NCBI RefSeq assembly: GCF_027604915.1
Contig: NZ_JAJAQC010000004.1
Coordinates: 1 to 64,000 of the forward strand
Source: Streptomonospora mangrovi
GTDB lineage: Bacteria; Actinomycetota; Actinomycetes; Streptosporangiales; Streptosporangiaceae
Direction: 5' to 3'
Length of the DNA: 64,000 nucleotides
In this document: in pieces, positions 4,923 through 25,830 of the stretch
How positions within the stretch are numbered: the stretch's first letter is position 1
Layout of the letters: the number at the start of each line of letters is the position of its first letter
The notes under the pieces: generated by a model
Told to the model about the DNA's origin: nothing
Databases searched by the model: none
What the model saw: only the letters and a program-made list of their open reading frames with translations
Program-made: the position numbers and the translations under genes

Positions 4923-5322
4923 GGCTCCTGGCCGCTGGTCTCGCCGTTCCTCTGCGGTTGGGCGAGACCGCCTCATTCCCGAACCGGACAAGAGGGGCGC
5001 CGGGTGCCTGAAATCTCACATGGTAAGACGAAAACGGCCCCCTTTCACCACGAGATGCGCCTACGGATCGCCAGGGCGAAGGAGAAGGCACTTTCGTCGC
5101 CCTTGGAAACGGAGAGGGGGACAAAAGGGTACGGCGGGCACTTCGATCGTCTCACCATGCGGACGCTTTGGCCCTCATGGGGCCACTTCGGTGCAGTCAT
5201 GGCCCATTCTGTAAGCGACAAACAGGGCAAAACATCATGAAACGCCGCGCCGAGTCCAGACGAGATGCGGATTCGCCCCGCCCACCCGCTCCGCCGAGCC
5301 ACCTGAACGCGGAAACGGCCAT
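4923..5322 (+). repeat. Dispersed ~400-bp intergenic element, copy A
   Basis: This segment aligns along its whole length with the reverse complement of 25434-25830. The two edges are nearly identical: 38 of 40 bases at 4923-4962 versus 25791-25830, and 34 of 36 at 5239-5274 versus 25480-25515. Between them single-base indels break every reading frame, so conservation is at the nucleotide level. Near one edge copy A has a hairpin with 9-bp arms, GGTCTCGCC (4937-4945) and GGCGAGACC (4961-4969). The element is AT-richer than its surroundings. No transposase, terminal repeat or known RNA family is recognised. The DNA from 4742 to 4922 shows nothing. Confidence 0.8.
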
Positions 5323-5690
5323 CGGCGCCGCCGCGCCCGTCGCGTCGCCGCCTCGGCCGTCCACCCTGGGTACCGATGGCCGCCCCGCCGGACCACCCGC
5401 CGCCGTCGCCGCCCCGTTGCCACCTCGCCCATCCGCCCGGCTGGTCGGTGGCCGCACGCGCGGACCCGCGTCCCGCCTCGGCGCCCCGTCGCCCCCTCAC
5501 CATCCGCCCAGGTGATCGGTGAACGCATGCCCGGACTCCCGCTTCGCGTCGGCGCCCCGTCGCCACCCCACCCATCCGCGGTGGTCGCGGCCCCGGACCC
5601 CCCTCGCATCGGTGCTCCGTCACCACCCTCGCCACTTGCCCAGGCGACCGCTGAACGCACGCCAAGACCAGGGCGCCGGGCGCCGCATTC
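5323..5690. repeat. Degenerate ~72-bp GC-rich repeat array next to element A
   Basis: The core CCCCGTNGCC followed by CATCCGCC-like sequence recurs at about 5412, 5484, 5555 and 5615 (spacings 72, 71 and 60). The units have diverged, so this is not a CRISPR array (no constant repeat, no unique spacers). A related array abuts element copy B. On the minus strand the period keeps a reading frame rich in G, D, E, A and R, but no confident gene is seen. Bases 5691-5801 hold only the leader of the exonuclease gene. Confidence 0.6.
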
Positions 5691-5801
5691 GCGGCGCCTT
5701 CGCCGGTTTCGGCCCGGACGGTGGGGCGGCGGCGGTAGTCTGCCTGCTGCGGTGCGGCGCCGAGTCGTGGCGGCCGCGCGGTAGGAGAGGGGGCGCATCC
5801 G

Positions 5802-6761
5802 ATGAGCCGGGCCTGGACCGCCGTGGACTTCGAGACCGCCAACCCCGACCGTGGCAGCGTGTGCGCCGTGGGGCTGGTGCGGGTGGTCGACGGCGCGGTC
5901 GTGGAGCGCTACTCCACCCTGGTGCGCCCGCCCGAGCCGGTGCGGTTCTTCTCGGCCCGCCACACCGCCATCCACGGCATCACCGCCGCCGACGTCGCCC
6001 AGGCGCCGCAGTGGCCCGAGGTGCTGGAGCGAATCACCGCCGTGGCCGGCGACGACCCGCTGGTGGCCCACAACGCCGCCTTCGACGTGGGCGTGCTGCG
6101 CGCGGCCTGTGCCCACACCGGGCTGGCCCGCCCCGCGATCTCCTACGCGTGCACGCTGGCGCTGGCCCGGCGCGCCTGGGCCGAGCTGCCCGACCACCGG
6201 CTGCCGACCGTGTGCGGGCGCATCGGCTGGGACATGGCCGGGCGCCACCACCGCGCCGACGCCGACGCCGAGGCCGCCGCCCGCATCGTGCTGGCCGCCA
6301 TGGAGGCCACCGCCGCCGCGTCCCTCAGCGCGCTGGCGGCGGCGCTGAGCTGGCCGCTGACCCGGCTGGCCGGCGGCCTGGACCCCCGTCCGGCCGCCAC
6401 CGGTGGCGCGGCCCGCCCCGGCGACCGGTTCGCCGCCTGGCAGGAGGCGGCGCGCGCCGAACTGCCCGAGGCCGACCCCGACGCCGACCCCTCCGGCCCT
6501 TTCTACGGCCGCACCGTGTGCATCAGCGGCGACCTCGACGGCATCCCCAAGCCCGACGCCTGGCGGCGCATCGCCGAGGCCGGCGGGCACCCGGCCAAGA
6601 ACGTCACCCGCGCCACCGACGTGCTGGTGGTGGCCGACTCCACCACGAGCGCGCCTACCGCCAAGCAGCGCCGCGCCGAGGACTACCGCGCCCGGGGCCA
6701 GGCCATCGAGATCATCGGCGAGCGCGAGTTCACCGCCCGCCTGGCCCTGGCCGGCGGCTGA
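5802..6761 (+). CDS. DnaQ-like 3'-5' exonuclease with C-terminal BRCT domain
   Basis: 319 aa. Residues 1-170 form a DEDDh exonuclease: VDFETAN supplies the first D/E pair (8-14), LVAHNAAFDVGVL the second motif, and H-R-A-D-A-D (about 147-152) the last His/Asp motif. A linker leads to a BRCT domain (about 235-315; GRTVCISGDLDGIPK, then LVVADSTTSAPTAKQRRAEDY), as in the C-terminal part of NAD-dependent ligases. Such proteins trim DNA 3' ends in repair or proofreading. A clear ribosome site (GGAGAGGGGG) precedes the ATG. Confidence 0.92.
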   Translation: MSRAWTAVDFETANPDRGSVCAVGLVRVVDGAVVERYSTLVRPPEPVRFFSARHTAIHGITAADVAQAPQWPEVLERITAVAGDDPLVAHNAAFDVGVLRAACAHTGLARPAISYACTLALARRAWAELPDHRLPTVCGRIGWDMAGRHHRADADAEAAARIVLAAMEATAAASLSALAAALSWPLTRLAGGLDPRPAATGGAARPGDRFAAWQEAARAELPEADPDADPSGPFYGRTVCISGDLDGIPKPDAWRRIAEAGGHPAKNVTRATDVLVVADSTTSAPTAKQRRAEDYRARGQAIEIIGEREFTARLALAGG

Positions 6762-6817
6762 GCCGCACCGCGCCCCGTCCCGTCCTCTCCCACTCCCCGC
6801 CCGCCGCCCCCGGGACC

Positions 6818-6846
6818 GCCGTCCAACGCCCCGGGCGGCGTGTTTG
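6818..6846. terminator. Possible bidirectional terminator region
   Basis: GC-rich inverted sequence (CGCC to GGCG around 6818-6842) followed by GTGTTT lies between the convergent exonuclease and exporter genes. A second small hairpin, TGCCG-CTT-CGGCA, lies at 6905-6917 before CCTTTT. Both are weak. The rest of the 310-bp gap 6762-7071 shows nothing else. Confidence 0.3.
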
Positions 6847-7071
6847 CACGCGGCCGGCGAGGGGTAGAGCACAGGCGCTCCGCCGGGTCGCGCGACCGGG
6901 CCAATGCCGCTTCGGCAGCGCCTTTTCCATGCCTGCGAGGGTGCCACTGCCCTCGATTGGCCCTTGTCTGGCCCTGGTTTCGGCTCTCCGTCGCCCCGAC
7001 GCGGCCGACCACCCCCCAGTTCCGGGCGTCGTTCAGGCCGGCGGCCGGCAGGTCGCGGACGTCCCGAAGGG

Positions 7072-8265
7072 TCAGCCGGATTTGGGAGTCGGCTCCCCGG
7101 CCGGTGCGGCGGCGCGGCGGGCCGCCCTGCGGTCGCCCGCGGCCGAGGCCGCCACCAGGAGCAGGCCCACCACCCCCAGCCCGGCGCCGAGCAGGCTGGG
7201 CGCGGCGAACCCGTAGCCCGCGGCGATGACCAGCCCGCCCAGCCAGGCGCCGCTGGCGTTTGCGAAGTTGAGCGCGGAGTGGTTGAGGGCGGCCGCCAGC
7301 GAGGGGGCGTCCTCGGCCTTGTCCATCAGCCGCGTCTGCAACGACGGCACCAGGGCGCTGCTGGTGAAGCCCAGCAGGAACACCATGGCCACCGCGCCCA
7401 CCGGCGAGGCCGCCAGCAGGTGCAGCAGGAGCAGCGCCAGCGTCATGGCGCCCATGGCCAGGTACATGGTGGGCATCAGCGCGCGGTCGGCCGCCCGGCC
7501 CCCGGCCAGGGTGCCGCAGGTCATGCCCACGCCGTAGAGGGCCAGCACGTAGGGCACCGCGCCCAGCGGCAGGCCGGCGACCTCGGTCATCATGGGGGAG
7601 ATGTAGCTGTAGGAGGCGAACATGCCGCCGAACCCCAGCGCGCCCACCGCCAGCGCCAGCCACACCTGGCCGCGCGCCAGCGCCCCGAACTCCGAGCGCA
7701 TGGAGGCCCCCGGCCGGGGCCGCTGGTTGGGCACCAGCAGGGCGATGGCGATCACGGTGAGCACGCCCACCCCGGCCACCAGGGCGAACGCGGCGCGCCA
7801 GCCGAACTCCTGGGCGGCCATCGTGCCCAGCGGCACGCCCACGATGTTGGCCACGGTCAGCCCGGCGATCATCAGCGCGACCGCCTGGGAGCGCTTGTTG
7901 AACGGCACCAGCGCCGCCGACAGCACCGCGCCGACCCCGAAGAACGTGCCGTGGGGCAGGGCGGTGGCCACGCGGGCGGCCAGCAGCAGCCCGAAGTTGG
8001 GCGCCAGCGCCGAGGCGAGGTTGCCCAGGGTGAACATGGCGGCCAGCCCGATGAGCAGGTGCTTGCGGTCGACGCGGGCGCTGAGCGGCGCCAGCAGCGG
8101 GGCGCCCACCACCACGCCCAGGGCGTAGCAGGAGATGACGTATCCGGCGGTGGGGATGGAGACCCCGAAGGCGTCGGCGACGTTGGGCAGAATGCCCATC
8201 GCGACGAATTCGGTGGTTCCTATGCAAAAGGCGCCGACGGCCAGAGCGAGCAGGGCGATGGGCAC
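7072..8265 (-). CDS. MFS exporter, DHA1 family
   Basis: 397 aa from GTG 8265, chosen because AGGAC lies 7 nt upstream and the protein then begins MPIALLALAVGAFCIGTTEF, as in the AraJ/YdhP/chloramphenicol-exporter group of drug:H+ antiporters. Twelve hydrophobic segments are visible, with LSARVDRKHLL as the motif-A loop between TM2 and TM3 and RVATALPHGTFFGVGAVLS in TM4. The family exports arabinose-like sugars, purines or drugs; the substrate is unknown. It is divergent from a VOC-family gene with a 17-bp palindrome between them. It converges on the exonuclease gene. Confidence 0.9.
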   Translation of the reverse strand: MPIALLALAVGAFCIGTTEFVAMGILPNVADAFGVSIPTAGYVISCYALGVVVGAPLLAPLSARVDRKHLLIGLAAMFTLGNLASALAPNFGLLLAARVATALPHGTFFGVGAVLSAALVPFNKRSQAVALMIAGLTVANIVGVPLGTMAAQEFGWRAAFALVAGVGVLTVIAIALLVPNQRPRPGASMRSEFGALARGQVWLALAVGALGFGGMFASYSYISPMMTEVAGLPLGAVPYVLALYGVGMTCGTLAGGRAADRALMPTMYLAMGAMTLALLLLHLLAASPVGAVAMVFLLGFTSSALVPSLQTRLMDKAEDAPSLAAALNHSALNFANASGAWLGGLVIAAGYGFAAPSLLGAGLGVVGLLLVAASAAGDRRAARRAAAPAGEPTPKSG

Positions 8266-8400
8266 GGCAGCCGTCCTCACTGGTGGGTGGTGCGGGAAGC
8301 GTCGCGGCGGAGGCCCCGGCCGCGCGCGCCGGGTGCCGGGGCTCGTGCGGGTCCGCCCGTCGACCGGGTGCACGGCGCCGGGGCGGCGGATACGGTCGCC

Positions 8401-8417
8401 GATCCCATGATGGGATC
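8401..8417. promoter_or_regulatory. 17-bp perfect palindrome, candidate operator
   Basis: GATCCCATGATGGGATC (arms GATCCCAT and ATGGGATC around one G) lies in the 306-bp divergent gap between the MFS exporter (start 8265) and the VOC gene (start 8572). The size and perfect symmetry fit a dimeric repressor site. No regulator gene is adjacent. The rest of the gap shows no other feature. Confidence 0.55.
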
Positions 8418-8571
8418 AAGAAGGCCGTCCGCCGCGCGGTGTTTCGTCCCCATCCTAACCAGGGCGTTCCGGTCTGTACGGTCTCACTGATGTTCGCTCC
8501 GCCACGCCGACCGCGCACGCCGCCCCGCGCCGCGCACGTCCGCACCGGGTTCACCCGGGCGGCGCCGGGGC

Positions 8572-8973
8572 ATGGATCCGACCATGGTGAACGTCCTCAG
8601 CAGCCGCGTCCTGCTGCACCCCCGCGACCTCGCCGCCAGCCGCGCCTTCTACCGCGACGTGCTCGGCCTCGCCGTCTTCCGCGAGTTCGGCACCCCGCCC
8701 GACCACGGCACGGTGTTCTTCCTGGGCGGGGGCTTCCTGGAGGTCTCGGGCACCGGCGAGCCCGCCGCCGACCCCGCCGCGCTGCGGCTGTGGCTCCAGG
8801 TGCCCGACATCGCCCAGGCCCACGCGGAGCTGGCCGAGCGCGGCGCGCCCATCCTGCGCTCGCCCCAGCGCGAGCCCTGGGGGCTGCTGGAGATGTGGAT
8901 CGCCGATCCGGATGGCGTCAAGATCTGCGTGGTGGAGGTGCCGGCCGACCACCCCATGCGCTACCGCCCCTGA
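8572..8973 (+). CDS. VOC (glyoxalase/bleomycin-resistance) family protein
   Basis: 133 aa in a single VOC fold: SSRVLLHPRDLAASRAFYRDVLGL (beta-alpha unit, 10-33), an acidic/hydrophobic middle, and the C-terminal WIADPDGVKICVVE strand (about 111-124) that usually carries the last metal-ligand Glu. Such proteins bind or convert small molecules (methylglyoxal, fosfomycin, bleomycin-like drugs). ATG 8572 or the in-frame ATG 8584 could be the start; neither has a strong ribosome site. Its pairing with a divergent drug-type exporter hints at a resistance role, which is inference. Confidence 0.85.
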   Translation: MDPTMVNVLSSRVLLHPRDLAASRAFYRDVLGLAVFREFGTPPDHGTVFFLGGGFLEVSGTGEPAADPAALRLWLQVPDIAQAHAELAERGAPILRSPQREPWGLLEMWIADPDGVKICVVEVPADHPMRYRP

Positions 8974-9219
8974 GGAGGGCGGCTGGGCGCCCGAAGCGTG
9001 CGGAAAACGGTCGATCGCCGAACGCCGGAGTCCGTCCCGCGCAAGGGGTTCAGCGTGTCCTACGCTCCCGGTAGTGTTCCCCCAGCCGGCGAACACGCTT
9101 TCGATCAGGGCGGCCACATATCCGGCTCGGCGGCCGTGGTCGGGCGTCCGGGTGCACGCGCCGCCCGGCGGCCGCACCGTGGCGGGCACCGCCGCCGACG
9201 ACGAGTACAAGGAGCGAGC

Positions 9220-9483
9220 ATGTCCGAGCCGACGCCCCCCACCCCGGGCTACACCCCCGCCGACAAGGAGACGGTCCTCGGCGTACTGCGTCGCCTGGGC
9301 ACGGCCGCCGCCCAGGCCCAGCGCGAGGCCGCCGCCGCGCCGAACGAGGCAGCGGCCGCCGAGCATCTGCGCCGGTCCCGGGAGGCGGTGGCCGAGCAGG
9401 CCCGCAGGGACATGCTCGCCATCCGCCCCGAGGCCATCGCGGCGCTGCACGCCGACATGGACGCCGACGACGACGAGAAGTGA
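9220..9483 (+). CDS. Small conserved-looking protein of unknown function
   Basis: 87 aa from ATG 9220, preceded by a good AAGGAGCG ribosome site. The sequence is Ala/Glu/Arg-rich and predicted helical (KETVLGVLRRLGTAAAQAQREA, then EHLRRSREAVAEQARRDML), ending in an acidic tail (DMDADDDEK). There is no signal peptide, membrane segment or known motif. The long upstream gap (8974-9219) may hold its promoter, with TAGTGT near 9072 as a possible -10. I do not recognise it. Confidence 0.65.
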   Translation: MSEPTPPTPGYTPADKETVLGVLRRLGTAAAQAQREAAAAPNEAAAAEHLRRSREAVAEQARRDMLAIRPEAIAALHADMDADDDEK

Positions 9484-9673
9484 GCTTCATGCCGCCGGAT
9501 GATCCGCCGGCCTAGGCGGCGGTGGACCTCGACCGCTCACCCCCGGGGGTGCCGGTGCCAAGCGGATCCGGTGGCGGTCGCCCCCCGCCGGACGTGGCCC
9601 CGCGGATCGGTTCAACCAGCCTTAGCGCGCCCTTCACCGGCGCCCCGGCCCCCCGCCGCGCACGCGCACCACG

Positions 9674-10765
9674 ATGGGGCGCATGCTCCTGCGCTCCCTC
9701 ACCACCCTGCTGGTGGCGGCCGGGCTGGCCGCCGCCTCGCTCACCCCCGCCGCCGCCGACACCACCGACGGCCGCGACCACGACCGCCACCGCCCCGGCC
9801 GCTCCTTCGACCTCCAGGCCCACCGCGGCGGCCTCGGCCTGGTCGTGGAGAGCACCCTGCCCGCCTTCGCCAACGCCCTGGAACTGGGCGTGAGCACGCT
9901 CGAACTCGACGTCCAGATCACCCGCGACGGCGAGGCCGTGGTCACCCACGACCGCCGCATCAGCGACCGCAAGTGCCGCGACACCCAGCCCGTCACCCCC
10001 GGCGACCCCCAGTACCCCTACGTCGGCTCCTACATCAAGGACCTGACGCTGGCGCAGGTGCGCACCCTGGACTGCGGCTCCCAGACCCTGCCGGAGTACC
10101 CCGGCCAGCGGGCCGCCCCCGGCGAGCGCATGCCGCTGCTGCGCGAGGTGTTCGACCTGGTGCACCGCTACCGCGCCCACGGGGTGGGGCTCAACATCGA
10201 GACCAAGGTCGAGGCGGGCGCCCCGCACGAGACCGCGCCGCGCGAGGAGTTCGTCCAAGTGGTGGTGGCCGAGATCCGCCGGGCGCGGCTGCTGCGCCAG
10301 GCCACCGTCCAGAGCTTCGACTGGGGCGCGCTGATGCGGGTGCGCGAGGTGGAGCCGCGGCTGCCGATCGTGGCGCTGACCAACCACGACTTCCTCCAGA
10401 CCGGGCAGCCCGGCGCCTCGCCCTGGCTGGGCGGCATCGACATCGACGACTTCGACGGCGACCCGGTCGCCGCGGTCGACTCCTTCGGCGCCGACGCCTT
10501 CTCCCCGGTGCACGGGTTCCCGCAGAACGGCACGGTGGGCGATCCCGACTACCGGCTCTACGTGGACGCCGCCATGGTGGCCCGCGCCCACCGCCGCGGC
10601 ATCGAGGTGGTGCCCTGGACCGTCAACGACCCCGCAACCATGCACGCCGTGCTGGACACCGGGGTGGACGGGCTGATCACCGACTACCCCGACCGGCTGC
10701 GCACGGTGATGCAGGAGCGCGGGCTCAAGCTCCCCAAGCCCTACCGCCCGCGCGGCCGGGCCTGA
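9674..10765 (+). CDS. Secreted glycerophosphodiester phosphodiesterase
   Basis: 363 aa. The signal peptide (basic start, LLRSLTTLLVAAGLAAASL, cleavage near AAA-D29) targets it outside the membrane. The GDPD TIM barrel follows: catalytic HRGG at 50-53, E59/N-terminal loop, ELDV with metal-binding E77 and D79, THDR with the second catalytic His at 92, and the C-terminal VPWTVNDP and GVDGLITDYP signatures. It hydrolyses deacylated phospholipids or teichoic-acid-type diesters to glycerol-3-phosphate, scavenging phosphate and glycerol. It is monocistronic and converges on an SDR gene across a strong hairpin. Confidence 0.95.
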   Translation: MGRMLLRSLTTLLVAAGLAAASLTPAAADTTDGRDHDRHRPGRSFDLQAHRGGLGLVVESTLPAFANALELGVSTLELDVQITRDGEAVVTHDRRISDRKCRDTQPVTPGDPQYPYVGSYIKDLTLAQVRTLDCGSQTLPEYPGQRAAPGERMPLLREVFDLVHRYRAHGVGLNIETKVEAGAPHETAPREEFVQVVVAEIRRARLLRQATVQSFDWGALMRVREVEPRLPIVALTNHDFLQTGQPGASPWLGGIDIDDFDGDPVAAVDSFGADAFSPVHGFPQNGTVGDPDYRLYVDAAMVARAHRRGIEVVPWTVNDPATMHAVLDTGVDGLITDYPDRLRTVMQERGLKLPKPYRPRGRA

Positions 10766-10786
10766 GCCCCAGCCCCACGTCACGTG

Positions 10787-10826
10787 GGTTGGTGCGCCCG
10801 TCCCGGGCGGGGCGGGCACACCAACC
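10787..10826. terminator. Strong bidirectional terminator hairpin
   Basis: GGTTGGTGCGCCCG (10787-10800) pairs with CGGGCACACCAACC (10813-10826) with one C-A mismatch, around a GC loop. It lies just past the glycerophosphodiesterase stop and before the 3' end of the convergent SDR gene. There is no T-run, as is common in actinomycetes. Confidence 0.75.
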
Positions 10827-10850
10827 GTCCGCGCGTCGGCCTTCCGCACG

Positions 10851-11801
10851 CTAGCGCGGCGCGGCCTCGGCGCTGTCGACGCTCCCGGCGTCGCCGGCTC
10901 CCTCGGGCGCGCGGGCGGCGCGGGCCCGCTGGTCGGCCGCCCCGCCCGCGCCCACCGCCGCGGCGCGCCGGTCGCGGGTGGCCTCCAGCCGGGCGTCCAG
11001 CCGGCTGATCTCGCGCGGCCCGAACGCGCCGATGAACCCCGGCAGCGCCCCGCGCACCCCTTGCAGCGCGCGCAGCCACGGCTGGCCGTAGACATGGGCG
11101 CGGCGGCGCGCGATCCCGGCCACGATGTGGTCCACCGCCGGCTCCAGGGGGAAGGTGCGGTTGAGCGGCCAGGGCAGCCGCGAGCGCATCTCGCGCAGCT
11201 CGTCGTCGGCGTCGGCCCCGCGCACCATGTCGGTGTCGGTCCAGGTCAGGTAGGCCACGCCCACGTCGACGCCCTTGTAGGCGACCTCGGGGCGCAGGCA
11301 GTGCGCGAACGCCTCCACCCCCGACTTGCTCGCGCAGTAGGCGGCCATCAGCGGCGCCGGGGTGATCGCCGCCAGCGAGGCGATCTGGAGCAGGTAGCCC
11401 CGGCTCTCCAGCAGCGCCGGCAGGAACGCGCGCGCGGTGGCGATGCTGCCGAGTAGGTTGACCTCGATGACGCGGTCGAAGGACGCGGCCCGGGTGTGGG
11501 CGAAGGGGCCGCCGGTGGCGATCCCGGCGTTGGCCACGACGATGTCGATGCGGCCGTAGCGCTCGGTGATCGCGGCCGCGGCCGCCTCCAGGGCGGCGGC
11601 GTCGGTGACGTCGGCCTGCCACCAGTCGGACTCGGCGCCGCAGTCCTTGGCGGTGGCGGCCAGTTCGTCGGGCTCCAGCCCCACCAGGGCGGTGCGCACG
11701 CCCTGGTCGGCCAGGCGGCGCGCCAGCAGCGCGCCCACCCCGCGCGCGGCGCCGGTGATCACGGCGGTGCGGCCGGCCAGGCGCGGATAGCGGCGGGTCA
11801 T
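10851..11801 (-). CDS. Short-chain dehydrogenase/reductase
   Basis: 316 aa. Cofactor motif TGAARGVG (about 16-23), VVANAG, the catalytic Ser in LLQIASLAAITP and the YCASK motif (Y-x3-K) are all present, so it should be an active NAD(P)-dependent oxidoreductase. The C-terminal ~60 residues are Ala/Arg-rich and probably disordered. Its ATG overlaps the stop of the upstream hydrolase gene by ATGA, so the two are translationally coupled. The pairing of an alpha/beta hydrolase with an SDR suggests sequential work on an ester or lipid substrate, which is inference. Confidence 0.92.
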   Translation of the reverse strand: MTRRYPRLAGRTAVITGAARGVGALLARRLADQGVRTALVGLEPDELAATAKDCGAESDWWQADVTDAAALEAAAAAITERYGRIDIVVANAGIATGGPFAHTRAASFDRVIEVNLLGSIATARAFLPALLESRGYLLQIASLAAITPAPLMAAYCASKSGVEAFAHCLRPEVAYKGVDVGVAYLTWTDTDMVRGADADDELREMRSRLPWPLNRTFPLEPAVDHIVAGIARRRAHVYGQPWLRALQGVRGALPGFIGAFGPREISRLDARLEATRDRRAAAVGAGGAADQRARAARAPEGAGDAGSVDSAEAAPR

Positions 11802-12703: not shown

Positions 12704-12860
12704 CTCGCCTCCCGGAGGGTGGTTCGGGGGCGGCGGCCGGAGGGGGCGCGGGGATCGCTGGAGGTGGGGCGGGAGGAGGGACGGAGGGTGCTCATGGGGG
12801 CCTCGACTCGCTCGGAGGTTACCGGTGAGTTCAGTAGTGGTGCCCGAGCGTAGACCATGA

Positions 12861-13535: not shown

Positions 13536-13547
13536 GGGGGCGGGCGG

Positions 13548-14257: not shown

Positions 14258-14277
14258 CACGCATCCCTCCCCATCGA

Positions 14278-17755: not shown

Positions 17756-17757
17756 GC

Positions 17758-18180: not shown

Positions 18181-18276
18181 TTCCCAATACTTTCTTCTAG
18201 GAACCTACTATCCCGCCGAATGTAGCCTCCTGGCGACCCCCGCGGAAACACCGCGGGCGTAGGCGAGGAGCGGGAC

Positions 18277-19116
18277 ATGATCGTGGTGACCGGAGCCACC
18301 GGCAACGTGGGGCGGCCGCTGGTGCGGGCGCTGGCCGAGGCGGGCGAGCGGGTGACGGCGGTGTCGCGCGGCCCCGGGGACGCGGGGTCCGCGCCCGGCG
18401 TCACCACACTGCGCGCCGATCTGACCGCCCCTGACGCGCCCGAGGTGCTGGCGCCCGCCCTGGCGGGGGCCTCGGCGCTGTTCCTGCTGACGGCCGCCTC
18501 GGTGCTGCCGCTGGGCGGGGCCGGGGTGGCGGGCGTCCTGGCGGCGGCCCGGGCCGCCGGGGTGGGCCGGGTGGTGCTGCTGTCGTCCCAGGGCGTCGGC
18601 ACCGGCCGCCACCCCTCCGACATCGAGGACGCCGTGCGGGCGGCCGGAGTGGAGTGGACGGTGCTGCGGCCGGGCGGGTTCCACTCCAACGCCGGGCAGT
18701 GGGCGCCGGGCGTGCGGGCCGAGCGGACGGTGGCCGCGCCCTTCGGCGACGTCGCGCTGCCCACCGTGGACCCCGCCGACATCGCCGCCATGGCCGCCGA
18801 GGCGCTGACCGGCGAGGGCCACGCCGGCGCCACCTACGTGCTCACCGGCCCCGAACCCGTCTCGCCGCGCGGCCAGGCGGCGGCGATCGGCGCGGCGCTG
18901 GGCGAACCGGTGCGCTTCGTGGAGTTGAGCCGGGAGCAGGCCCGCGAGCGGATGCTGGGCTTCATGCCAGCCCCGGTCGTGGCGGCCACCCTGTCCGTGC
19001 TGGGCGAGCCCACGCCCGAGGAGGTCCGCGTCAGCCCCGACGTGGAGCGCGTCTTGGGCCGGCGCCCCCGCGCCTTCGCCGAGTGGGCCGCCGACAACGC
19101 CGCCCTGTTCCGCTGA
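18277..19116 (+). CDS. NmrA-like NAD(P)-binding oxidoreductase
   Basis: 279 aa. An atypical SDR: the cofactor motif TGATGNVG (5-12) starts the protein, with VVLLSSQGVG and WTVLRPGGFHSNAGQW typical of NmrA/QorB-like NADPH:quinone reductases. It lacks the Y-x3-K pair of classical SDRs. The divergent HxlR regulator (gap 18181-18276) is probably its repressor. A role in quinone or electrophile detoxification is inferred from this pairing. Confidence 0.9.
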   Translation: MIVVTGATGNVGRPLVRALAEAGERVTAVSRGPGDAGSAPGVTTLRADLTAPDAPEVLAPALAGASALFLLTAASVLPLGGAGVAGVLAAARAAGVGRVVLLSSQGVGTGRHPSDIEDAVRAAGVEWTVLRPGGFHSNAGQWAPGVRAERTVAAPFGDVALPTVDPADIAAMAAEALTGEGHAGATYVLTGPEPVSPRGQAAAIGAALGEPVRFVELSREQARERMLGFMPAPVVAATLSVLGEPTPEEVRVSPDVERVLGRRPRAFAEWAADNAALFR

Positions 19117-19153
19117 GCGCGCGCCCCGGCGGCGGGGGCGCCGGGGCGGCGGG

Positions 19154-19420
19154 CTAGCGGGCCGGTGCGGGTGCGGCGTGGGCGCCGGCAGCCGCCGCGC
19201 TCGCCCAGGTCCCGGCGGGGATGGTGAAGTAGGACGGCCACTCCTCGTGGCGGTCGTCGGCGTCCAGGCGCACCAGGTAGCGGTAGGTGCCGTCGCCGCT
19301 GGGGGTGGCGTCCAGCACGCTGGCGGTGCCGCGGACCATGGCGCCGCGGTCGGTCTCGCCGACATCGTGGACGCGGGTGTGCGGCGCGTAGGGGTGGGCG
19401 GGCAGCGGCTGGCGCGTCAC
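19154..19420 (-). CDS. Small protein of unknown function
   Basis: 88 aa from GTG 19420, with GGAGG five nt upstream. It has beta-strand-like sequence (GAMVRGTASVLDATPSGDGTYRYLVRLD, 27-54) and an Ala-rich tail. No signal, membrane segment or recognised family; the HTRVHDVGETDRGAMVRG stretch looks like an SH3/OB-type strand pair. It sits between the NmrA-like gene and a TetR gene. The 213-bp stretch 19421-19633 shows nothing else. Confidence 0.65.
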   Translation of the reverse strand: MTRQPLPAHPYAPHTRVHDVGETDRGAMVRGTASVLDATPSGDGTYRYLVRLDADDRHEEWPSYFTIPAGTWASAAAAGAHAAPAPAR

Positions 19421-19633
19421 GGGGGCCTCCGAGGGCGGGGGTCAGGGGATGTGCCCGGCGCCCGCGCCGGGGCGGGGCCGGTGCGGGTCGCGCTACCCCG
19501 CCCCCTCCCGGCAAACGCGGCGCACGGCCCGCGCCCGCCGGGTCGGCGGGGGCCGCGCCCGCGACCTGCGCCGATGCCCGGCGCAGCGGCCGCGGAGTGA
19601 CACAGGCCACGCGGCCGTGCGGCGGGCCGGCGG

Positions 19634-20323
19634 TCAGCCGGTGGATTCGGCGGGCGGGGGGGAGTCGGCGCGGGCGGGGGCGGCGAAGGAGAGCGCGCCG
19701 GGCAGGGCGTCGAAGGCGGCGTCCAACCGGGCGGCGAGGGCGCCGCGGGTGTGGCCGCCCTCCTGGGCGGTCCAGGTCTCCAGCGCGTGGTGCCAGGCCG
19801 CGACCACCAGGTCGATGGCCAGGCGCGGCCGGGGGTCGGCGGGGTCCACGTCGAGGCGGCGGTGCAGGTCGGCCACGATCCGCGCGCTGGTGCGGTTGCA
19901 GAAGTGCAGGCCGTGGGCGTCCATGGACGGCGTTGCCGCCGCGAGCCTGCGGCTGAGCAGCATGCGGTGCTCCCACCCCTCGTCGGGCATGGCCGCCACG
20001 GTTTCGCGCAGCACGGCCCGGAGTTCGGCCGCCACCGGCCGCCCGCCGAGGTCGCGGCCGGCCAGGCGGTCGGCGAAGGCCCGCCACATGTCCTCGGCCG
20101 GCGCCATGGCGACGTCCTCCTTGCTGGCGAAGGTGCGGAAGAAGGTGCGCTTGGACACCTCCACCGCGTCGCACAACTCGTCCAGGGTGGCGCCGTCGAA
20201 GCCCCGCTCGGTGAACATCCGCAGCGCGGTGTCGATGAGGGCGTGCCGGGTGCGCAGCTTCTTGCGTTCGCGCAGCGGCAGGCCGGAGGGCGGGGCGGCG
20301 GCCGGGGGCGGAGATGGGGTCAC
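19634..20323 (-). CDS. TetR-family regulator
   Basis: 229 aa from GTG 20323. The N-terminal DNA-binding domain (about 20-65) reads RTRHALIDTALRMFTERGF with the helix-turn-helix TLDELCDAVEVSKRTFFRTF. The C-terminal domain is typical of TetR but of unknown ligand. There is no ribosome site, and a -10-like sequence lies close, so the mRNA may be leaderless. It is divergent from a quinone-reductase gene with a perfect 15-bp operator between them. Confidence 0.9.
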   Translation of the reverse strand: MTPSPPPAAAPPSGLPLRERKKLRTRHALIDTALRMFTERGFDGATLDELCDAVEVSKRTFFRTFASKEDVAMAPAEDMWRAFADRLAGRDLGGRPVAAELRAVLRETVAAMPDEGWEHRMLLSRRLAAATPSMDAHGLHFCNRTSARIVADLHRRLDVDPADPRPRLAIDLVVAAWHHALETWTAQEGGHTRGALAARLDAAFDALPGALSFAAPARADSPPPAESTG

Positions 20324-20366
20324 GCAGAGGAGTGTACTCGGAGCGCTTTTGCCTCTTGTAGGTTTA

Positions 20367-20381
20367 TGCCACTTAGTGGCA
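20367..20381. promoter_or_regulatory. 15-bp TetR operator
   Basis: TGCCACT-T-AGTGGCA is a perfect dyad in the TetR/quinone-reductase gap. On the minus strand TTGCCA overlapping it could be a -35 with TACAAG 16 nt on. Binding would block both promoters. Confidence 0.75.
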
Positions 20382-20451
20382 AAGTCGTCCGGGTGGCGCC
20401 CGCTCCGGGCGTCCGCACCGTCTACCCATCCAACGCAGAAAAAGGTCCGCC

Positions 20452-21381
20452 ATGCGCGCACTGCTCATCGACCACTCCGCCCCCGGCGGCCTGCGGCCGG
20501 GCGAGGCCCCGGCCCCCGACCCCGCCCCGCACCAGGCGCTGGTCCGGGTGGCGGCCACGTCGCTGAACTTCGGCGAGGTCAGCACCGGCATCGCCGGGGC
20601 GCCCGAGGGCAGCGTCCTGGGCTGGGACGCGGCGGGGGTGGTGGAGCGCGCCGCCGCCGACGGCTCCGGCCCCGCCGAAGGCACCCCCGTGGTCACCCTG
20701 GGACTCGACGGCGGGTGGGCCGAGCTGCGCGCGGTGGACACCGCCCTCCTGGGAACCGTGCCCGGCGGCGCCGACCTCGGCGCGGTGTCCACCGTCCCCG
20801 TCGCCGCCACCAGCGCCCTGCGCGCCCTGCGCCGGCTCGGCCCGCTGCTGGGCGCCCGCGTCTTGATCACCGGCGCCACCGGCGGCGCGGGCCGCTACGC
20901 CGTGCAGCTCGCCCGCCGGGCCGGCGCGCACGTGGTCGCCTCCACCGGCGACCCCGACACCCACGGCGCGGGGCTGCGCGCCCTGGGCGCCCACGAGGTG
21001 GTGCGGGGTCCGGGCGCCTACGGCGGGCAGGTCGACGGCGTGATCGACCTGGTGGGCGGCCCCCAGATGGTGGCGGCGTTCGAGCGCCTGGCGGCGGACG
21101 GCACGCTCGTGTCGGTGGGCCACAGCACCGGCGAGCCCGTGGTGTTCCCCATCGAGGCACTGCTGGCCACCGAGGGCCGCCACAACCGCTCCGTCACCAC
21201 GTTCTACCTGCTGGGCGAGTCCGACCTGGCGCCCGACCTGACGTGGCTGGCCGAGCGGGTCGCCGCCGGCGAACTGGACCCCGCCGTCTCCTGGCGGGGC
21301 GGCTGGGAGCGGGCCGCCGAGGCGGTCGGCGCGCTGGTCGAGCGCCGCCTGCACGGCAAGGCGGTGCTCGACCTGTCCTGA
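20452..21381 (+). CDS. Quinone-oxidoreductase-like (zinc-independent MDR) protein
   Basis: 309 aa of the medium-chain dehydrogenase/reductase family. The GroES-like N-terminal half includes [14 protein letters not shown] and [13 protein letters not shown]; the cofactor domain has [20 protein letters not shown] (about 141-160), the A-G-G-A-G nucleotide loop. The structural zinc Cys cluster is absent, as in NADPH:quinone reductases. The C-terminal GKAVLDL is typical. Its divergent TetR neighbour and operator suggest induction by a small toxic or quinone-like ligand. Confidence 0.92.
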
Positions 21382-21545
21382 GCGAGGCGCCGGGCGAACG
21401 CCGCATCGACCGCTCCGGCGTGGGTAGCCGGAGCAGCACGTTCACCTCCGGGGCCGCCGCCCCGCCCCCGGGCACCGCCGGCCGGCGCGGTGGCCCGGCG
21501 GGGGCGGTGCGGCGGCCCCGCCGCCCGCACGACAGGTCACCGCCC

Positions 21546-22805
21546 ATGGTCTCGATCGAGGACTCCGCCCGCCTGCTGCACACCCTGCTGCGCAACAGCC
21601 ACCTGAGCGTTTTCGAGGAGCTGCCGGGACTGGTCACCAGCGCCGCCGCGGCCGCCGGCCTCGCCGACGTCCGCATCCTGCTGGCCGACATGCAGGAGGA
21701 GACGCTGCGCGAGGCCACCGGCCGGGGCGACGACGCCGGCGACGGCGGCCAGGAGGCGCGCATCGACACCACCCTGCCCGGCCGCGTATTCCGCGCCGCC
21801 CAGGCGCACTCGGCGCCGGGGGAGGGGCGGGTGCAGCACTGGCTGCCGATCCTGGACGGCACCGAACGCCTGGGCGTGCTGCACGTGAGCACCGCCGAGG
21901 AGCCCGACGACCCCACCTGGGCGGCGATGGAGGACCTCGCCTCGCTGGTGGGCATGCTTGTGGTGTCCAAGCGGCCGCACAGCGACTCCCACGCGCGGCT
22001 GACCCGGCTCCGCTCCATGTCGGTCTCCGCGGAGATGCAGTGGACGCTCATGCCGCCGCGCACGTTCGCCGACAAGCGGGTCACCATCGCGGCGGCGATG
22101 GAACCCGCCTACGCCACCGCCGGCGACGCCTACGACTACGCCCTGGCCGGCGACACCGTCCACCTCGCCCTCTTCGACGCCATGGGCCACGACACCTCGG
22201 CCGGCCTCACCGCCAACCTCGCCCTGGCCTCCTGCCGCCGGCAGCGGCGCGAGGGCGGCGGCCCGGTCCGCATCCGCGACGCCGTGGAGGCCACGCTGCT
22301 GGAGCAGTTCGAGGGGTCCCGCTACGCCACCGCCGTGCTCGCCGAGCTCGACCTGCGCACCGGCGTGCTGACCTGGCTGAGCTGCGGCCACCCGCCGCCC
22401 ATCCTGGTCCGCGCCGGGCGCTGGATCACCGGCCTGCCGTGCGAGCCCACCCATCCGATGGGCACCGATTTGGGGCTGCCCGCCGTGCTGTGCCGGGAGC
22501 ACCTGGAGCCCGGCGACCGCCTGCTGCTCTACACCGACGGCATCACCGAGGCCCGCGACGCGCGGGGGCGGGAGTTCGGGCGCGAGCGCTTCGTCAACTT
22601 CGTCATCCGCCACCAGGCCGACGGGCTGGCCGCGCCCGAGACCCTGCGCCGCCTGGTGGCCGCCGTGCTGGCCCACCACGACGGCCGGCTCAACGACGAC
22701 GCCACCGTGCTGATGTGCGAGTGGCACGGCGCCCCCGACGCCGACCCCCGGGCGCCGGTCCAGTACGGGGGCGGCCACGTCCCCGACGTCACCGGCCGGT
22801 CCTGA
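21546..22805 (+). CDS. GAF-domain SpoIIE/PP2C-type serine phosphatase
   Basis: 419 aa from ATG 21546. Residues 1-150 form a GAF-like sensor (LLRNSHLSVFEELPGLVTSA, ERLGVLHVSTAEEPDD). Residues about 180-400 are the SpoIIE phosphatase: VSAEMQWTLMPPR, then AGDAYDYALAGDTVHLALFDAMGHD with the metal-binding Asp pair, LTWLSCGHPPPILVR, LLLYTDGITEARD and the final LNDDATVLMCEW Asp pair. Such proteins dephosphorylate anti-anti-sigma factors. No partner is adjacent; the ATPase at 15625 is 6 kb away. The start lacks a strong ribosome site. Confidence 0.92.
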   Translation: MVSIEDSARLLHTLLRNSHLSVFEELPGLVTSAAAAAGLADVRILLADMQEETLREATGRGDDAGDGGQEARIDTTLPGRVFRAAQAHSAPGEGRVQHWLPILDGTERLGVLHVSTAEEPDDPTWAAMEDLASLVGMLVVSKRPHSDSHARLTRLRSMSVSAEMQWTLMPPRTFADKRVTIAAAMEPAYATAGDAYDYALAGDTVHLALFDAMGHDTSAGLTANLALASCRRQRREGGGPVRIRDAVEATLLEQFEGSRYATAVLAELDLRTGVLTWLSCGHPPPILVRAGRWITGLPCEPTHPMGTDLGLPAVLCREHLEPGDRLLLYTDGITEARDARGREFGRERFVNFVIRHQADGLAAPETLRRLVAAVLAHHDGRLNDDATVLMCEWHGAPDADPRAPVQYGGGHVPDVTGRS

Positions 22806-22832
22806 GTCCGCCTGAGCGGCGTTCCGGCGGAC

Positions 22833-23933
22833 TCAGGCGGGCTCGGCCGGCACGCGCACGCGGTCGGACTCCCCGTCGCTGAGGAAGGCCGCGAGCGCGG
22901 CGCCCTCCTCGGCCGCGGCGGCGCGCTCGGCGGGGGACAGGCGCCGCAGCGGGGCCACGGCCACGGCGCCCTCCTCCACCGTCCAGGTCGCGGCGACCCG
23001 GCCGTCCAGCAGGAGCACGCGCGCGCCCGCCACCGACAGGCCCCGGTGGGCGTCGTCGACGATCCGGCCGCGGTCGTGGTAGCCCAGCAGCGCGTTGTCG
23101 AACGCCGGCAGGAACCGCACCGGGGCGGGGGTGTCGGGGTCGGGGCGCGGGGCGTCGGGCAGGTCCAGCAGTTCCCGGCCGCGCTCGTCGCGGAAGGACA
23201 CCAGTTCGTCCCGGACCGCCGCGACGGCGGCGGGCAGCCCGGCGAGCCCGCACCAGGCGCGCAGGTCGGCGCTTGCGGCCGGCCCGAACGCGGCCAGGTA
23301 GCGGCGGACCAGGTGGGCGCCGACCGGGTCGGTGCCGTCGGGGGCGGGCGGGTCGGGCTCGCGGCCCAGCCATGAGGAGAGCAGGACGTTGCGCACCCCG
23401 GCCTTCTCGCGCCACAGCCCGCGCGGCGGGATCTGCACCACCGGGACCAGGGCCGCGACCACCAGCTCGCCCAGGGGGCGGCGGCCCGGTCGGGGCCAGC
23501 GGTCGGCCAGCGCGGCGGCGACCTCGGCCAGGGTGCGCGGCTCGCCGTCGGCCAGCAGGTCGCGGCCTGCCGCGGCGAGCGCGTCGAGGTCGAGGCCGCC
23601 GAATTGGTCACGGTAGACCCCGACGACGCGCTGGCGCAGCATGGCGTCGTGGCGGGAACGCCACGCCAGGGCGTCGGCGGCGGTGACGAGGTGGACGGTG
23701 CGCCGCATCAGGTGCATCCGCACCACGGCGCGCTTGCGGAGCAGGTCCGACAGGCGGGCCGGATCGAACGCCCGCAGCCGCGACCACAGTCCGGTGAACG
23801 GCTCCTGCGGCTCCTGGGCCTGCAAGCCGCACAGGTGGGCGACGGCGTCGAGGACGGGCAGGTCGGCGCGGTCGAGCAGGAGTTGGCGGGCGAGCGTGGC
23901 GCGGTTGAGGGCGCGGGTGCCCAGGACGGTCAC
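22833..23933 (-). CDS. AlkZ/YcaQ-like winged-helix DNA glycosylase family protein
   Basis: 366 aa from GTG 23933. The family pattern is clear: LNRATLARQLLLDR (9-22), GLQAQEPQEPFTGLWSRL with the conserved Q-A-Q catalytic motif, VVRMHLMRRTVHLV and the C-terminal FLPAFDNALLGYHDR. AlkZ unhooks DNA crosslinks and protects the azinomycin producer; the wider family is very common in actinomycetes with mostly unknown substrates. It is divergent from the WYL regulator at 24151 (217-bp gap), which may control it. Confidence 0.88.
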   Translation of the reverse strand: MTVLGTRALNRATLARQLLLDRADLPVLDAVAHLCGLQAQEPQEPFTGLWSRLRAFDPARLSDLLRKRAVVRMHLMRRTVHLVTAADALAWRSRHDAMLRQRVVGVYRDQFGGLDLDALAAAGRDLLADGEPRTLAEVAAALADRWPRPGRRPLGELVVAALVPVVQIPPRGLWREKAGVRNVLLSSWLGREPDPPAPDGTDPVGAHLVRRYLAAFGPAASADLRAWCGLAGLPAAVAAVRDELVSFRDERGRELLDLPDAPRPDPDTPAPVRFLPAFDNALLGYHDRGRIVDDAHRGLSVAGARVLLLDGRVAATWTVEEGAVAVAPLRRLSPAERAAAAEEGAALAAFLSDGESDRVRVPAEPA

Positions 23934-24121
23934 CGGGCACCGGCCCGTCGGCGGTGGTGCGTTCTCACGGTGCGGGTTCCTTCCTGTTCGCGCCGAGGGG
24001 AGGCGCGGAGGCGGGCGGGGGCGGGACGGCGGCTCGGCGGTGGGGCGGTCCGGGTGGCACGACCTGCGGGGGCGCCGTTGTCGGTGCGCACCCCACGGTG
24101 CCAGAAGAAGAGGCCAGGGAG

Positions 24122-24139
24122 TGTCCGCGTCAGCGGGCA
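24122..24139. promoter_or_regulatory. TGTCCGC inverted repeat at the WYL-regulator start
   Basis: TGTCCGC (24122-24128), four bases, then GCGGGCA (24133-24139) is an imperfect dyad reaching the start region. The 11-mer GGAGTGTCCGC here (from 24118) occurs exactly at 37181-37191, in front of the other WYL-regulator gene. It is a candidate autoregulatory site. Confidence 0.5.
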
Positions 24140-24150
24140 TGATGGATGCC

Positions 24151-25209
24151 ATGCCGAAGACCTCCGCGCGACTGCTGGCGCTGCTCTCCCTCCTCCAGGC
24201 GCGCCGGGACTGGCCGGGGGCGCTGCTGGCCGAGCGGTTGGACGTCAGCCCCCGCACCGTGCGCCGCGACGTGGACCGGCTGCGCGAGCTGGGCTACCCG
24301 ATCGCGGCCGTGAAGGGTCCCGACGGAGGCTACCGGCTGGACGCCGGCTCGCACCTGCCCCCGCTGCTGTTCGACGACGAGCAGGCCGTGGCCCTGGCCG
24401 TGGCGCTCCAGACCGCCGCCGCCACCGGGGCCGGCATCGGGGAGGCGGCGGCGCGCGCCCTGACCACCGTCCGCCAGGTGATGCCGGCCCGGCTGCGCCG
24501 CCGCGTCGACACCCTCCAGGTCACCGCCGTGGGGGCGCCCGGCGACGCGCCCCGCACCCGGGTCCGCGGCGAGGTGCTCACGGCGCTCAGCACCGCCGTG
24601 CACGCGCGCGAGGTGCTGCGGTTCGACTACGCCGCCGCCGCGCCGCCGGAGGCGGCCGGGGGCGGGGGTGGAGGCGAGAGCGGGGGTGGCGGTGACCGTG
24701 GGGCCGAGGGCGGCGCCGACCCGCTCCCGCCGCTCCCGCCGCGCCGGGTGGAGCCCCACCACCTCGTGACGTGGGGCGGGCGCTGGTACCTGGTGGCCTG
24801 GGACCTGGGCCGGGCGGACTGGCGCACGTTTCGCGCCGACCGGATCTCGCCGCGCACCCCCACCGGTCCGCGCTTCGCCCCCCGCGAGGTGCCCGGCGGC
24901 GACGTGGCCGCGTTCGTCGCCTCCCGGTTCCGCGGCGGCGCGGAGGGCGTTCCGGACTGGCCCTGCCGCGGCGAGGTGGTCCTGGACCTGCCCGCCGCGG
25001 CGGTGTCCCCCCACGCCCGCGACGGGGTGGTGGAGGCGCTGGGCCCCCACCGCTGCCGACTCGTCCTGGGTTCGTGGTCGTGGGTCGGCCTGGCCGCCGC
25101 CATAGGCGCCTTCGACGCCGACGTGGAGGTGGTCGGCCCACCCGAGTTGGCGGACGCGTTCGCCCGCCTGGCCCGCCGCTACGGCCGCGCGGGCGCGGGG
25201 GATGAGTAG
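24151..25209 (+). CDS. YafY-type HTH/WYL-domain regulator
   Basis: 352 aa from ATG 24151 (an in-frame ATG at 24139 is an alternative). The HTH_11 winged helix spans 1-60 (LLALLSLLQARRDWPGALLA, VSPRTVRRDVDRLRELGYPI), the WYL domain about 150-260 with GGRWYLVAWDLGRADWRTF, and a WCX extension ends the protein. A Gly/Glu-rich low-complexity insert (about 170-182) splits the WYL region. WYL domains bind nucleic acids or nucleotides, and these regulators often answer DNA damage, which fits the divergent AlkZ-like gene. Confidence 0.92.
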   Translation: MPKTSARLLALLSLLQARRDWPGALLAERLDVSPRTVRRDVDRLRELGYPIAAVKGPDGGYRLDAGSHLPPLLFDDEQAVALAVALQTAAATGAGIGEAAARALTTVRQVMPARLRRRVDTLQVTAVGAPGDAPRTRVRGEVLTALSTAVHAREVLRFDYAAAAPPEAAGGGGGGESGGGGDRGAEGGADPLPPLPPRRVEPHHLVTWGGRWYLVAWDLGRADWRTFRADRISPRTPTGPRFAPREVPGGDVAAFVASRFRGGAEGVPDWPCRGEVVLDLPAAAVSPHARDGVVEALGPHRCRLVLGSWSWVGLAAAIGAFDADVEVVGPPELADAFARLARRYGRAGAGDE

Positions 25210-25261
25210 GAAGTCAGCGGCCGACCGGCTGGGAGGTCGCGGCATCAATCAGCCCATCAGG

Positions 25262-25433
25262 GCTCAAGGGCGGCAAGGGGGCACCGAGGACAAGCACGGC
25301 GTCAGGAGCGCGACCACCCCATCCGGGGCGGATGGTGAGGGTGGAGACGGGGCACCGAGGCGGGGCGCGGGTCCTGGTCCGCGGTCACCGGTCGGCAGGG
25401 CGGATGGTCGGGGTGGCGGCGCGGCGCGGGGCC
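25262..25433. repeat. Degenerate GC-rich repeat array next to element B
   Basis: Units matching the array beside copy A (GGTGCCCCGT-type cores followed by CATCCGCC, on the minus strand) occur here about 72 bp apart. Related sequence, including two GCGCGATCCGATG cores at about 25942 and 26012, lies on the other side of element B (25860-26050). The family is strongly diverged and shows no open gene. Confidence 0.5.
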
Positions 25434-25830
25434 ATGGCCTGTTTCCGCTCTCGGCGGCCCGGCGGAGGGGCGGTGAAGTGAACCCGCATCTCGTCGGGAC
25501 TCGGCGCGGCGTTTCCTTGTGATTTGACCTTTTAGTCTCTTGTAAAATGGGCTGCGGCGGCGCCGAAGTGACCCCATGAGGGCGAATATGTCCATATGGC
25601 GAGACAGCCGAGGTGCTCGCAATTCCTTTTTGTGTGCAATGCCCGTTTTCAACGGTGACGAAAGTGCTCTTTGCTTCGCAGTGGCGATCCGTAGGTGCAT
25701 CTCCTGGTGAAAGAGGCCACTTTCTTCTCACCATGTGAAATTTCAGGCGCCCAGCGTCCGGCTTGTCCGGTTTGTGAATTGGGGGGCTCTCCCAACCGCA
25801 GAGGAACGGCGAGATCAGCGGCCAGAAGCC
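25434..25830 (-). repeat. Dispersed ~400-bp intergenic element, copy B (inverted)
   Basis: Reverse-complement partner of 4923-5322, about 20.5 kb away and in opposite orientation. Both edges are almost identical to copy A while the middle has several indels. It lies in a 0.9-kb gene-free stretch between the WYL regulator (end 25209) and the LysR gene (end 26109). Like copy A it is locally AT-rich (for example TCTCTTGTAAAATGG) amid GC-rich DNA. No transposase or known RNA is recognised. Apart from the flanking arrays nothing else is seen in 25210-26108. Confidence 0.8.

What the first reader, a model, noticed from the sequence alone, without database searches (positions are those of the whole stretch)
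4923..25830. Pair of inverted ~400-bp elements 20.5 kb apart, with no known identity
4923-5322 and 25434-25830 are reverse-complement relatives across their full length in otherwise gene-free DNA. The edges are almost perfect (38/40 and 34/36 identities counted by hand) while the middle has indels that break all frames. That pattern suggests a non-coding mobile or structured element (MITE-like, or an RNA) rather than a gene. Both copies are AT-richer than the surroundings and are flanked by the same degenerate ~72-bp repeats. I cannot match it to any family I know.
Basis: seen in the sequence. Interest (0 to 1): 0.75.

Follow-up and report, generated by a model that had tools for sequence, protein, structure and literature searches.

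The report
Mobile non-coding islands flanked by repeats
The two inverted sequences belong to a large family of roughly one-kilobase non-coding DNA islands, each a central block between two outward-facing arrays of short repeats, that appear at different places in the chromosomes of two closely related bacteria; searches found no earlier description of them.

Summary
The two ~400-bp sequences are cores of ~1-kb intergenic islands. Their own genome (G000) has about 27 such cores and one relative (G003) at least 33; the four other genomes held for the genus have none detectable. Cores are non-coding, AT-richer, almost free of internal indels, and lie between arrays of ~72-bp repeats that always point outward (87 of 87 repeat hits beside cores, whatever the core's strand).

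Of 24 G000 loci compared with G003, 7 are shared, 12 lack the core there (both window copies included), 1 is rearranged and 4 are unresolved. G003 has a 99%-identical inverted twin 23 kb away, at a site empty in G000. The six most similar same-contig pairs, the window pair included, are all inverted and 13-38 kb apart.

Two other species carry related outward arrays around different multi-copy cores. Conserved core positions are kept between orthologous copies far better than variable ones.

Best reading: a foldback-like, non-autonomous mobile element family. The agent of movement, target-site duplications and a partner gene were not found. Covariation for an RNA is borderline; Rfam has no match.

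The parts
4756..5690 (.). Island 1: DNA present here and absent from the orthologous gap in G003 (left end at 4755/4756 by alignment; right end approximate)
   Evidence: G003 has about 144 bp between the same two genes and no core
4933..5292 (+). Core of island 1 (family-wide conserved part about 4976-5293)
   Evidence: nhmmer bit score 301; alignment
5388..5579 (+). Right arm of island 1: ~72-bp repeats pointing outward
   Evidence: Tandem Repeats Finder 2.7 copies; repeat search
4756..4932 (-). Left arm of island 1: degenerate G-rich repeats in the opposite orientation
   Evidence: seen in the alignment; not reported as a separate repeat hit
5014..5028 (.). Palindromic site 1 of the core (TCTCACATGGTAAGA here; family TCTCACATGGTGAGA)
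   Evidence: sequence and alignment
5150..5164 (.). Site 2 of the core (TCTCACCATGCGGAC), largely the reverse complement of site 1
   Evidence: sequence and alignment
25465..25820 (-). Core of island 2
   Evidence: nhmmer bit score 300; BLAST 78% to core 1
25326..25427 (-). Left arm of island 2: ~72-bp repeats on the minus strand, pointing outward
   Evidence: repeat search
25951..26057 (+). Right arm of island 2: weak repeat match on the plus strand, pointing outward
   Evidence: array part of the G002 profile, E 0.0042

Best explanation
The pair is two copies of a non-coding, non-autonomous mobile element of foldback type: a ~318-bp core with conserved palindromic and repeated short sites, between two arms made of ~72-bp repeats that point outward. 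Shown: copy number, intergenic place, the fixed plan, presence or absence of whole islands between two related genomes, a near-identical inverted twin at a site empty in the relative, and better-than-background conservation of core sites in resident copies. Inferred: that the twin is a new copy rather than a loss elsewhere, that copies are made mostly to places within tens of kilobases, and the agent. The agent could be a recombinase acting in trans on the core sites, or replication-fork template switching at hairpin-prone arms; the latter would fit short distance, inversion and the lack of a visible target-site duplication. Inverted pairs would survive because direct pairs would delete the genes between them.
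For: About 27 (G000) and 37 (G003) model hits, none in G001, G002, G004, G005. All 25 profile places in G000 lie between predicted genes. 87 of 87 repeat hits beside cores point outward whatever the core's strand. 12 of 24 G000 loci lack the core in G003, 8 of them as short gaps; 8 of 11 probed G003 loci lack it in G000, 4 as short gaps. L093/L094: 99% identical, 23 kb apart, inverted, L094 site empty in G000. L012/L014: 95%, 33 kb, inverted, L014 site empty in G003. Six most similar same-contig pairs all inverted, 13-38 kb apart.
Against: No target-site duplication or sharp end seen in 13 junction comparisons. No ORF in the islands and no transposase partner known; a search for one was not made. 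Loss in one genome plus gene conversion between close copies could mimic gain at any single locus; no outgroup was used for direction. Core positions are better conserved than expected for a mere parasite's dead copies. Single-strand foldback of the two window islands is mild (z -1.65 and -1.73; one gene control +0.75; 20 shuffles each). Spacing in G003 is slightly more even than random (gap CV 0.72; 3.5% of 5000 simulations as low).
Confidence: 0.55

Rival explanations
1. Host-maintained DNA sites: each island is a nucleoprotein platform for chromosome organisation or segregation; the core is a set of protein sites and the arms are phased repeats; turnover between species is replacement of equivalent sites.
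For: Columns at least 90% conserved agree in 251 of 287 orthologue cells against 97 of 219 for columns under 50%. Few internal indels. 33 cores spread over the G003 chromosome, slightly evenly. Related islands in G002 and G005.
Against: 12 of 24 loci not shared with a close relative; absent from four genomes of the genus in this form; no bound protein known. Helical phasing is not seen in type A (block-shuffle p 0.395) or type B (p 0.19), only in type C (0 of 2000 shuffles).
Confidence: 0.2
2. A multi-copy structured RNA: the core is transcribed and folds, with site 1 pairing site 2 and a second stem between core model positions 62-75 and 102-115.
For: Two stems with 29 and 22 two-sided changes at about 80% pairing; perfect 14-bp complement in two copies, L019 and L246. 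In 60 tree-simulated alignments 2 reach 29 and 1 reaches the observed number of stems. Five of 31 copies fold with z of about -3.5 to -5.
Against: No Rfam match; RNAalifold -5.8 kcal/mol on 20 cores and -2.1 on the 123-column part; mean z -1.13 and -0.87; most copies pair poorly in the inner part of the second stem. Paired sites can also covary because one protein reads both.
Confidence: 0.15
3. Relics: old repeats or a decayed gene or phage piece that drift without function, homogenised now and then by gene conversion.
For: Copies are widely diverged (mean same-genome pair identity 0.55); some are partial; arrays occur without a detectable core.
Against: Conserved columns are kept in orthologues and, in six twin pairs pooled, differ in 19 of 358 cells against 122 of 791 at variable ones (the L012/L014 pair alone shows little contrast, 3 of 61 against 9 of 137). 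No match in phage or plasmid collections.
Confidence: 0.05

Closest known systems
Foldback transposons, e.g. Tetris of Drosophila virilis (PMC4079207; abstract and the section 'Tetris Is a Foldback TE' read)
   Same: Non-coding, non-autonomous element with inverted arms that hold internal tandem repeats; repeats also found as separate arrays.
   Different: Eukaryotic; has 8-10-bp target-site duplications; repeats ~220 bp; middle part not described there as a conserved multi-site core.
Bacterial interspersed repeats BOX, RUP and SPRITE of Streptococcus pneumoniae (PMC3049150; abstract read)
   Same: Many dispersed non-coding copies, nearly limited to close relatives, thought by those authors to be parasitic and slow to move.
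   Different: No ~318-bp core between outward-pointing ~72-bp arrays; here whole islands of about 1 kb.
MITEs and other IS-derived non-autonomous elements (general knowledge)
   Same: Non-coding and multi-copy; movement would need a factor in trans.
   Different: No IS-type terminal inverted repeats, target-site duplication or parent IS was found; larger and modular.

Membership tests
MITE / IS-derived element | Short terminal inverted repeats shared with an autonomous element | tested here: inconclusive
   None seen by eye at 13 junctions; outer ends are not sharp. No search for an autonomous partner was made.
MITE / IS-derived element | Target-site duplication | tested here: inconclusive
   None visible in 13 filled/empty comparisons, but intergenic drift between the two genomes blurs the junctions.
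Foldback transposon | Long inverted arms holding tandem repeats | tested here: met
   87 of 87 repeat hits beside type-A cores point outward; 42 of 42 in G002 and 73 of 73 outside the core in G005.
Foldback transposon | Target-site duplication and a transposase in trans | tested here: inconclusive
   No duplication visible; transposase not searched for.
Mobile element in general | Filled and empty sites between related genomes | tested here: met
   8 short empty gaps in G003 and 4 in G000.
Known structured RNA family | Match to an Rfam model | tested here: not met
   No match at gathering score for the window nor at E up to 5 for 4700-5700.
Composite transposon bounded by the two copies | The 20-kb interval moves with its ends | tested here: not met
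   The genes beside both copies have the same order and strand in G003 (585-609 kb) without either core.
Protein-coding gene | Open frame conserved among copies | tested here: not met
   Only 1-4 of 31 cores are open in any frame; conservation equal in the three phases.

The most novel reading that the evidence does not exclude
A genus-wide class of bacterial element in which the outward repeat arms are the lasting part and the core is remodelled or replaced from species to species (type A in G000 and G003, B in G005, C in G002), multiplying without a transposase by local inverted template switching, much as satellite-like DNA does in eukaryotes, while its core sites stay under selection.
Probability: 0.25. 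Interest if true: 0.85.

Novelty: new variant of a known kind. Interest (0 to 1): 0.62.

Why it matters
If true, these very G+C-rich chromosomes carry about one unnamed ~1-kb mobile island per 170-240 kb (37 hits in 6.27 Mb and 27 in 6.36 Mb). The islands come and go between close relatives, form inverted pairs that could promote inversions, and have species-specific cores on related arms. They would make directly testable how non-coding repeats multiply in bacteria when no transposase is in sight, and whether such repeats are parasites or host DNA sites.

Tried and rejected
Considered and rejected: (a) a protein gene. (b) A known RNA. (c) A 20-kb composite transposon. (d) Helical phasing of the type-A core: a first spectrum had a peak near 11 bp, the fuller test did not (best 13.5 bp; column shuffle p 0.0155, block shuffle p 0.395). 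Type C does show a 10.4-bp period (0 of 2000 in both shuffles), type B does not reach significance (p 0.145 and 0.19). (e) Phage or plasmid origin: no match; the one viral-contig pattern hit (L258) shares only a 24-base stretch, E 0.089. (f) 'CCTAG|ATCTTCGAGG' as a fixed end: at the left junction of window copy 1 and L013 only.

Led nowhere: naming the organism (motif scan of genome contigs 0 hits, near records may be left out there; protein scan gave many actinomycete genera). Literature searches (open-access library only, listings seen) showed no description of this family. The relation among core types is weak: best profile cross-matches A to C E 1.9e-5, B to C E 1.3e-5 in the core's middle, A to B 0.25. 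A signature written after looking at the cores occurs in 9 of 61 A, 6 of 8 B and 11 of 15 C cores, 0 in 62 kb of window outside the islands and 0 in 169 kb of other actinomycete DNA; a looser form gives 14, 6 and 11 cores and 0 and 1 in the backgrounds. Copies within one type are not independent. G001 and G004 were not resolved beyond fragments. The short or cut copies L017, L021, L024, L026, L031 and L068 were left out of the 31-core alignment used for lengths, folding z and (with two partial orthologues added) constraint.
Full report
OBSERVATION. A search of the window's own genome (G000, 6.36 Mb, 121 contigs) with 4923-5322 gives 26 matches; the second window copy is the best after self (78%, E 7.8e-83). 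Iterated nhmmer on fetched stretches gives 25 places, 20 near full length. Two (L024, L031) are halves of one copy, since both match one G003 locus, L099, leaving 24 loci. The finding is real, but it is a family, not a pair.

ANATOMY. The core is about 318 bp; 27 of 31 aligned cores measure 317-319 bp (range 311-320), with ends set to the model's bounds and 0-3 deleted and 0-3 inserted bases inside each copy. All six frames hold stops in most copies and conservation shows no codon phase. Mean G+C is 60.8% over 61 cores. Conserved blocks include a palindrome (TCTCACATGGTGAGA), a second site largely its reverse complement (TCTCACCATGTGGAC), and recurrences of GGACAAAAGGG, GGGCAAA and ACGAGATGCG (read). 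Repeats of ~72 bp lie on both sides. In the profile search (92 repeat hits), 58 of 58 hits left of a core are on the minus strand and 29 of 29 right of a core on the plus strand, whichever way the core points; the other 5 hits lie in loci without a scored core. All 25 places lie between predicted genes, with mixed gene orientations (genes by a simple scorer of my own).

DISTRIBUTION. A sequence-only model of a 122-position part of the core finds 27 places in G000 and 37 in G003, and none in the four other genomes of the genus (150 of about 5000 first-look candidates scored per genome). Among 297 genomes of the family, 4 have a match: G000, G003 and two single weak hits (E 3.6e-4 and 8.2e-4, which I take as chance over 297 genomes; stricter filters applied). 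BLAST finds no match in the plasmid or phage collections. With more members in the profile, 28 core pieces in G000 and 33 in G003 score at least 70 bits among the loci fetched.

TURNOVER. G003 is a close relative: the stretches that align around the two window copies are 83-90% identical in DNA. At window copy 1, G003 has about 144 bp between the same two genes and no core; at copy 2 it has about 790 bp of other DNA and no core. Of the 24 G000 loci, 7 have a core, some partial, at the same place in G003 (L010, L012, L018, L024/L031, L028, L029, L030). In 12 the core is absent from G003: 8 as short gaps of 355 bp or less (window copy 1, L009, L013, L014, L015, L020, L025, L027) and 4 with other or array DNA in the place (window copy 2, L016, L022, L026). 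L011 is rearranged: its right flank is inverted in G003. L017, L019, L021 and L023 are unresolved. In reverse, of 11 G003 loci probed in G000, 2 are shared (L093, L099), 8 lack the core (L069, L070, L071, L094 as short gaps; L065, L095, L096, L098 with other or array DNA) and L064 matched on one side only. Place-sharing does not always mean close descent: L010/L066 (73%) and L018/L067 (70%) are each other's best relatives, but L030/L093 agree in only 173 of 317 columns (55%), no more than average copies.

COPYING. L093 and L094 in G003 have 99%-identical cores 23 kb apart and inverted; the near-identical block covers the core and inner parts of both arms. The L094 place in G000 is empty, 40 bp between the shared flanks. 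L012 and L014 (95%, 33 kb, inverted) tell the same the other way round: L012's place holds half a core in G003, L014's place is empty there. The six most similar same-contig pairs (99, 95, 93, 82, 78, 77%) are all inverted and 13-38 kb apart; the window pair is one (77%, 20.5 kb). The next same-contig pair (76%) is direct and 2.5 Mb apart. Three comparably close pairs lie on different contigs, so their distance is unknown (L027/L021, L013/L016, L021/L026). Of 10 same-contig pairs 2-60 kb apart, 8 are inverted; of the four with low identity (48-55%), two are inverted and two direct. Survivorship can explain the bias, and gene conversion between close inverted copies could raise their identity. 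Which member is the source, and loss plus conversion at any one locus, cannot be settled without an outgroup.

CONSTRAINT. Over five same-place pairs, columns at least 90% conserved in the rest of the family agree in 251 of 287 cells, columns at 75-90% in 204 of 295, at 50-75% in 305 of 547, and under 50% in 97 of 219. For the two pairs that are also best relatives (L010/L066, L018/L067) it is 115 of 131 against 60 of 107 (from the rows). In six twin pairs the most conserved class differs in 19 of 358 cells, the middle in 76 of 612 and the least conserved in 122 of 791. Resident copies are not drifting freely, which fits either a host role or copies that must stay competent to move.

OTHER CORES. 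Arrays related to the 72-bp repeat occur in G005 and G002, around other multi-copy cores. Type B in G005: about 780 bp, including a ~270-bp palindromic stretch that also occurs alone; copies 77-89% alike; 27 places match 711 or more bases of a 1,842-base query that includes the arms. Type C in G002: roughly 650 bp of core in 16 of 17 fetched loci, which were chosen for their arrays; pairs 73-86% alike. Their arms also point outward: 42 of 42 repeat hits beside G002 cores and 73 of 73 outside the core interval in G005, with 5 inside it (sides assigned with a 60-bp tolerance). Core types are linked only by weak matches (A-C E 1.9e-5, B-C E 1.3e-5, A-B 0.25) and by a signature written after inspection. 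I read them as one class with fast-changing cores, as a suggestion.

RNA. Rfam is silent. RNAalifold gives -5.8 kcal/mol for 20 cores and -2.1 for the 123-column part in 28 sequences. Mean single-sequence z is -1.13 (plus) and -0.87 (minus), with five of 31 copies at about -3.5 to -5 on the plus strand. Two stems have many two-sided changes, 29 and 22. Under column permutation the best of 12 controls is 12, but in 60 alignments simulated on the tree 2 reach 29, 4 reach 22, and 1 reaches the number of stems. The RNA reading stays open and unproven.

MECHANISM. My best account is a foldback-like element copied to nearby sites, mostly in inverted orientation. Shown: plan, copy number, filled and empty sites, recent inverted twins, constraint. 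Inferred: gain rather than loss, and the agent. Single-strand foldback is mild: z -1.65 and -1.73 for the two window islands, +0.75 for one gene control, 20 shuffles each.

KNOWN KINDS. Tetris of Drosophila (PMC4079207; abstract and one section read) has the same plan of inverted arms with internal tandem repeats and no conserved ORF, but has target-site duplications and is eukaryotic. BOX, RUP and SPRITE of pneumococcus (PMC3049150; abstract read) are the nearest bacterial kind in behaviour. Searches of open-access papers (listings) showed no description of this family. Because interspersed non-coding repeats are a known kind, I rate it a new variant; the arm-and-core plan with species-specific cores is what is new.

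Noticed in passing
L021:3238-3354, end of L024, L031:3184-3331 (G000 contigs C96, C62, C30): Two cores are cut at nearly the same place, site 2 (profile positions about 151-159), at contig ends that hold the ends of an insertion sequence. One end encodes an HTH_38 domain (PF13936, E 4.2e-9); that it is IS30-like, and that IS30 elements favour palindromic targets, is recalled.
   Followed up: partly
L011 (G000 C21:35800-42200) and L122 (G003 C1:4516300-4524000): At the place of the L011 island, G003 has the left flank, about 4.6 kb of other DNA, and the right flank inverted: a rearrangement breakpoint at an island.
   Followed up: no
   Followed up: no
G005 C2:601783-602554, C2:858366 and others; L277: A ~270-bp palindromic stretch of the type-B core also occurs alone, 86-92% identical, at several places; weaker matches in G002 and G004.
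   Followed up: no
L106, L079, L081, L084, L108, L109 (G000); L100 (G003): Some intergenic places carry 72-bp arrays, in L079, L081, L084, L108 and L109 in the outward plan, without a detectable type-A core; L100 had neither by this search.
   Followed up: partly
L095 (G003 C1:986200-990000), about 1511-2234: An island with one core and two partial cores in the opposite orientation on either side of it.
   Followed up: no
window 4936-4971: The left edge of copy 1 holds a 9-bp inverted repeat, GGTCTCGCC ... GGCGAGACC, seen in the sequence; not a family-wide feature.
   Followed up: no
window 29001-30000: Lowest G+C kilobase of the window, 66.4%.
   Followed up: no
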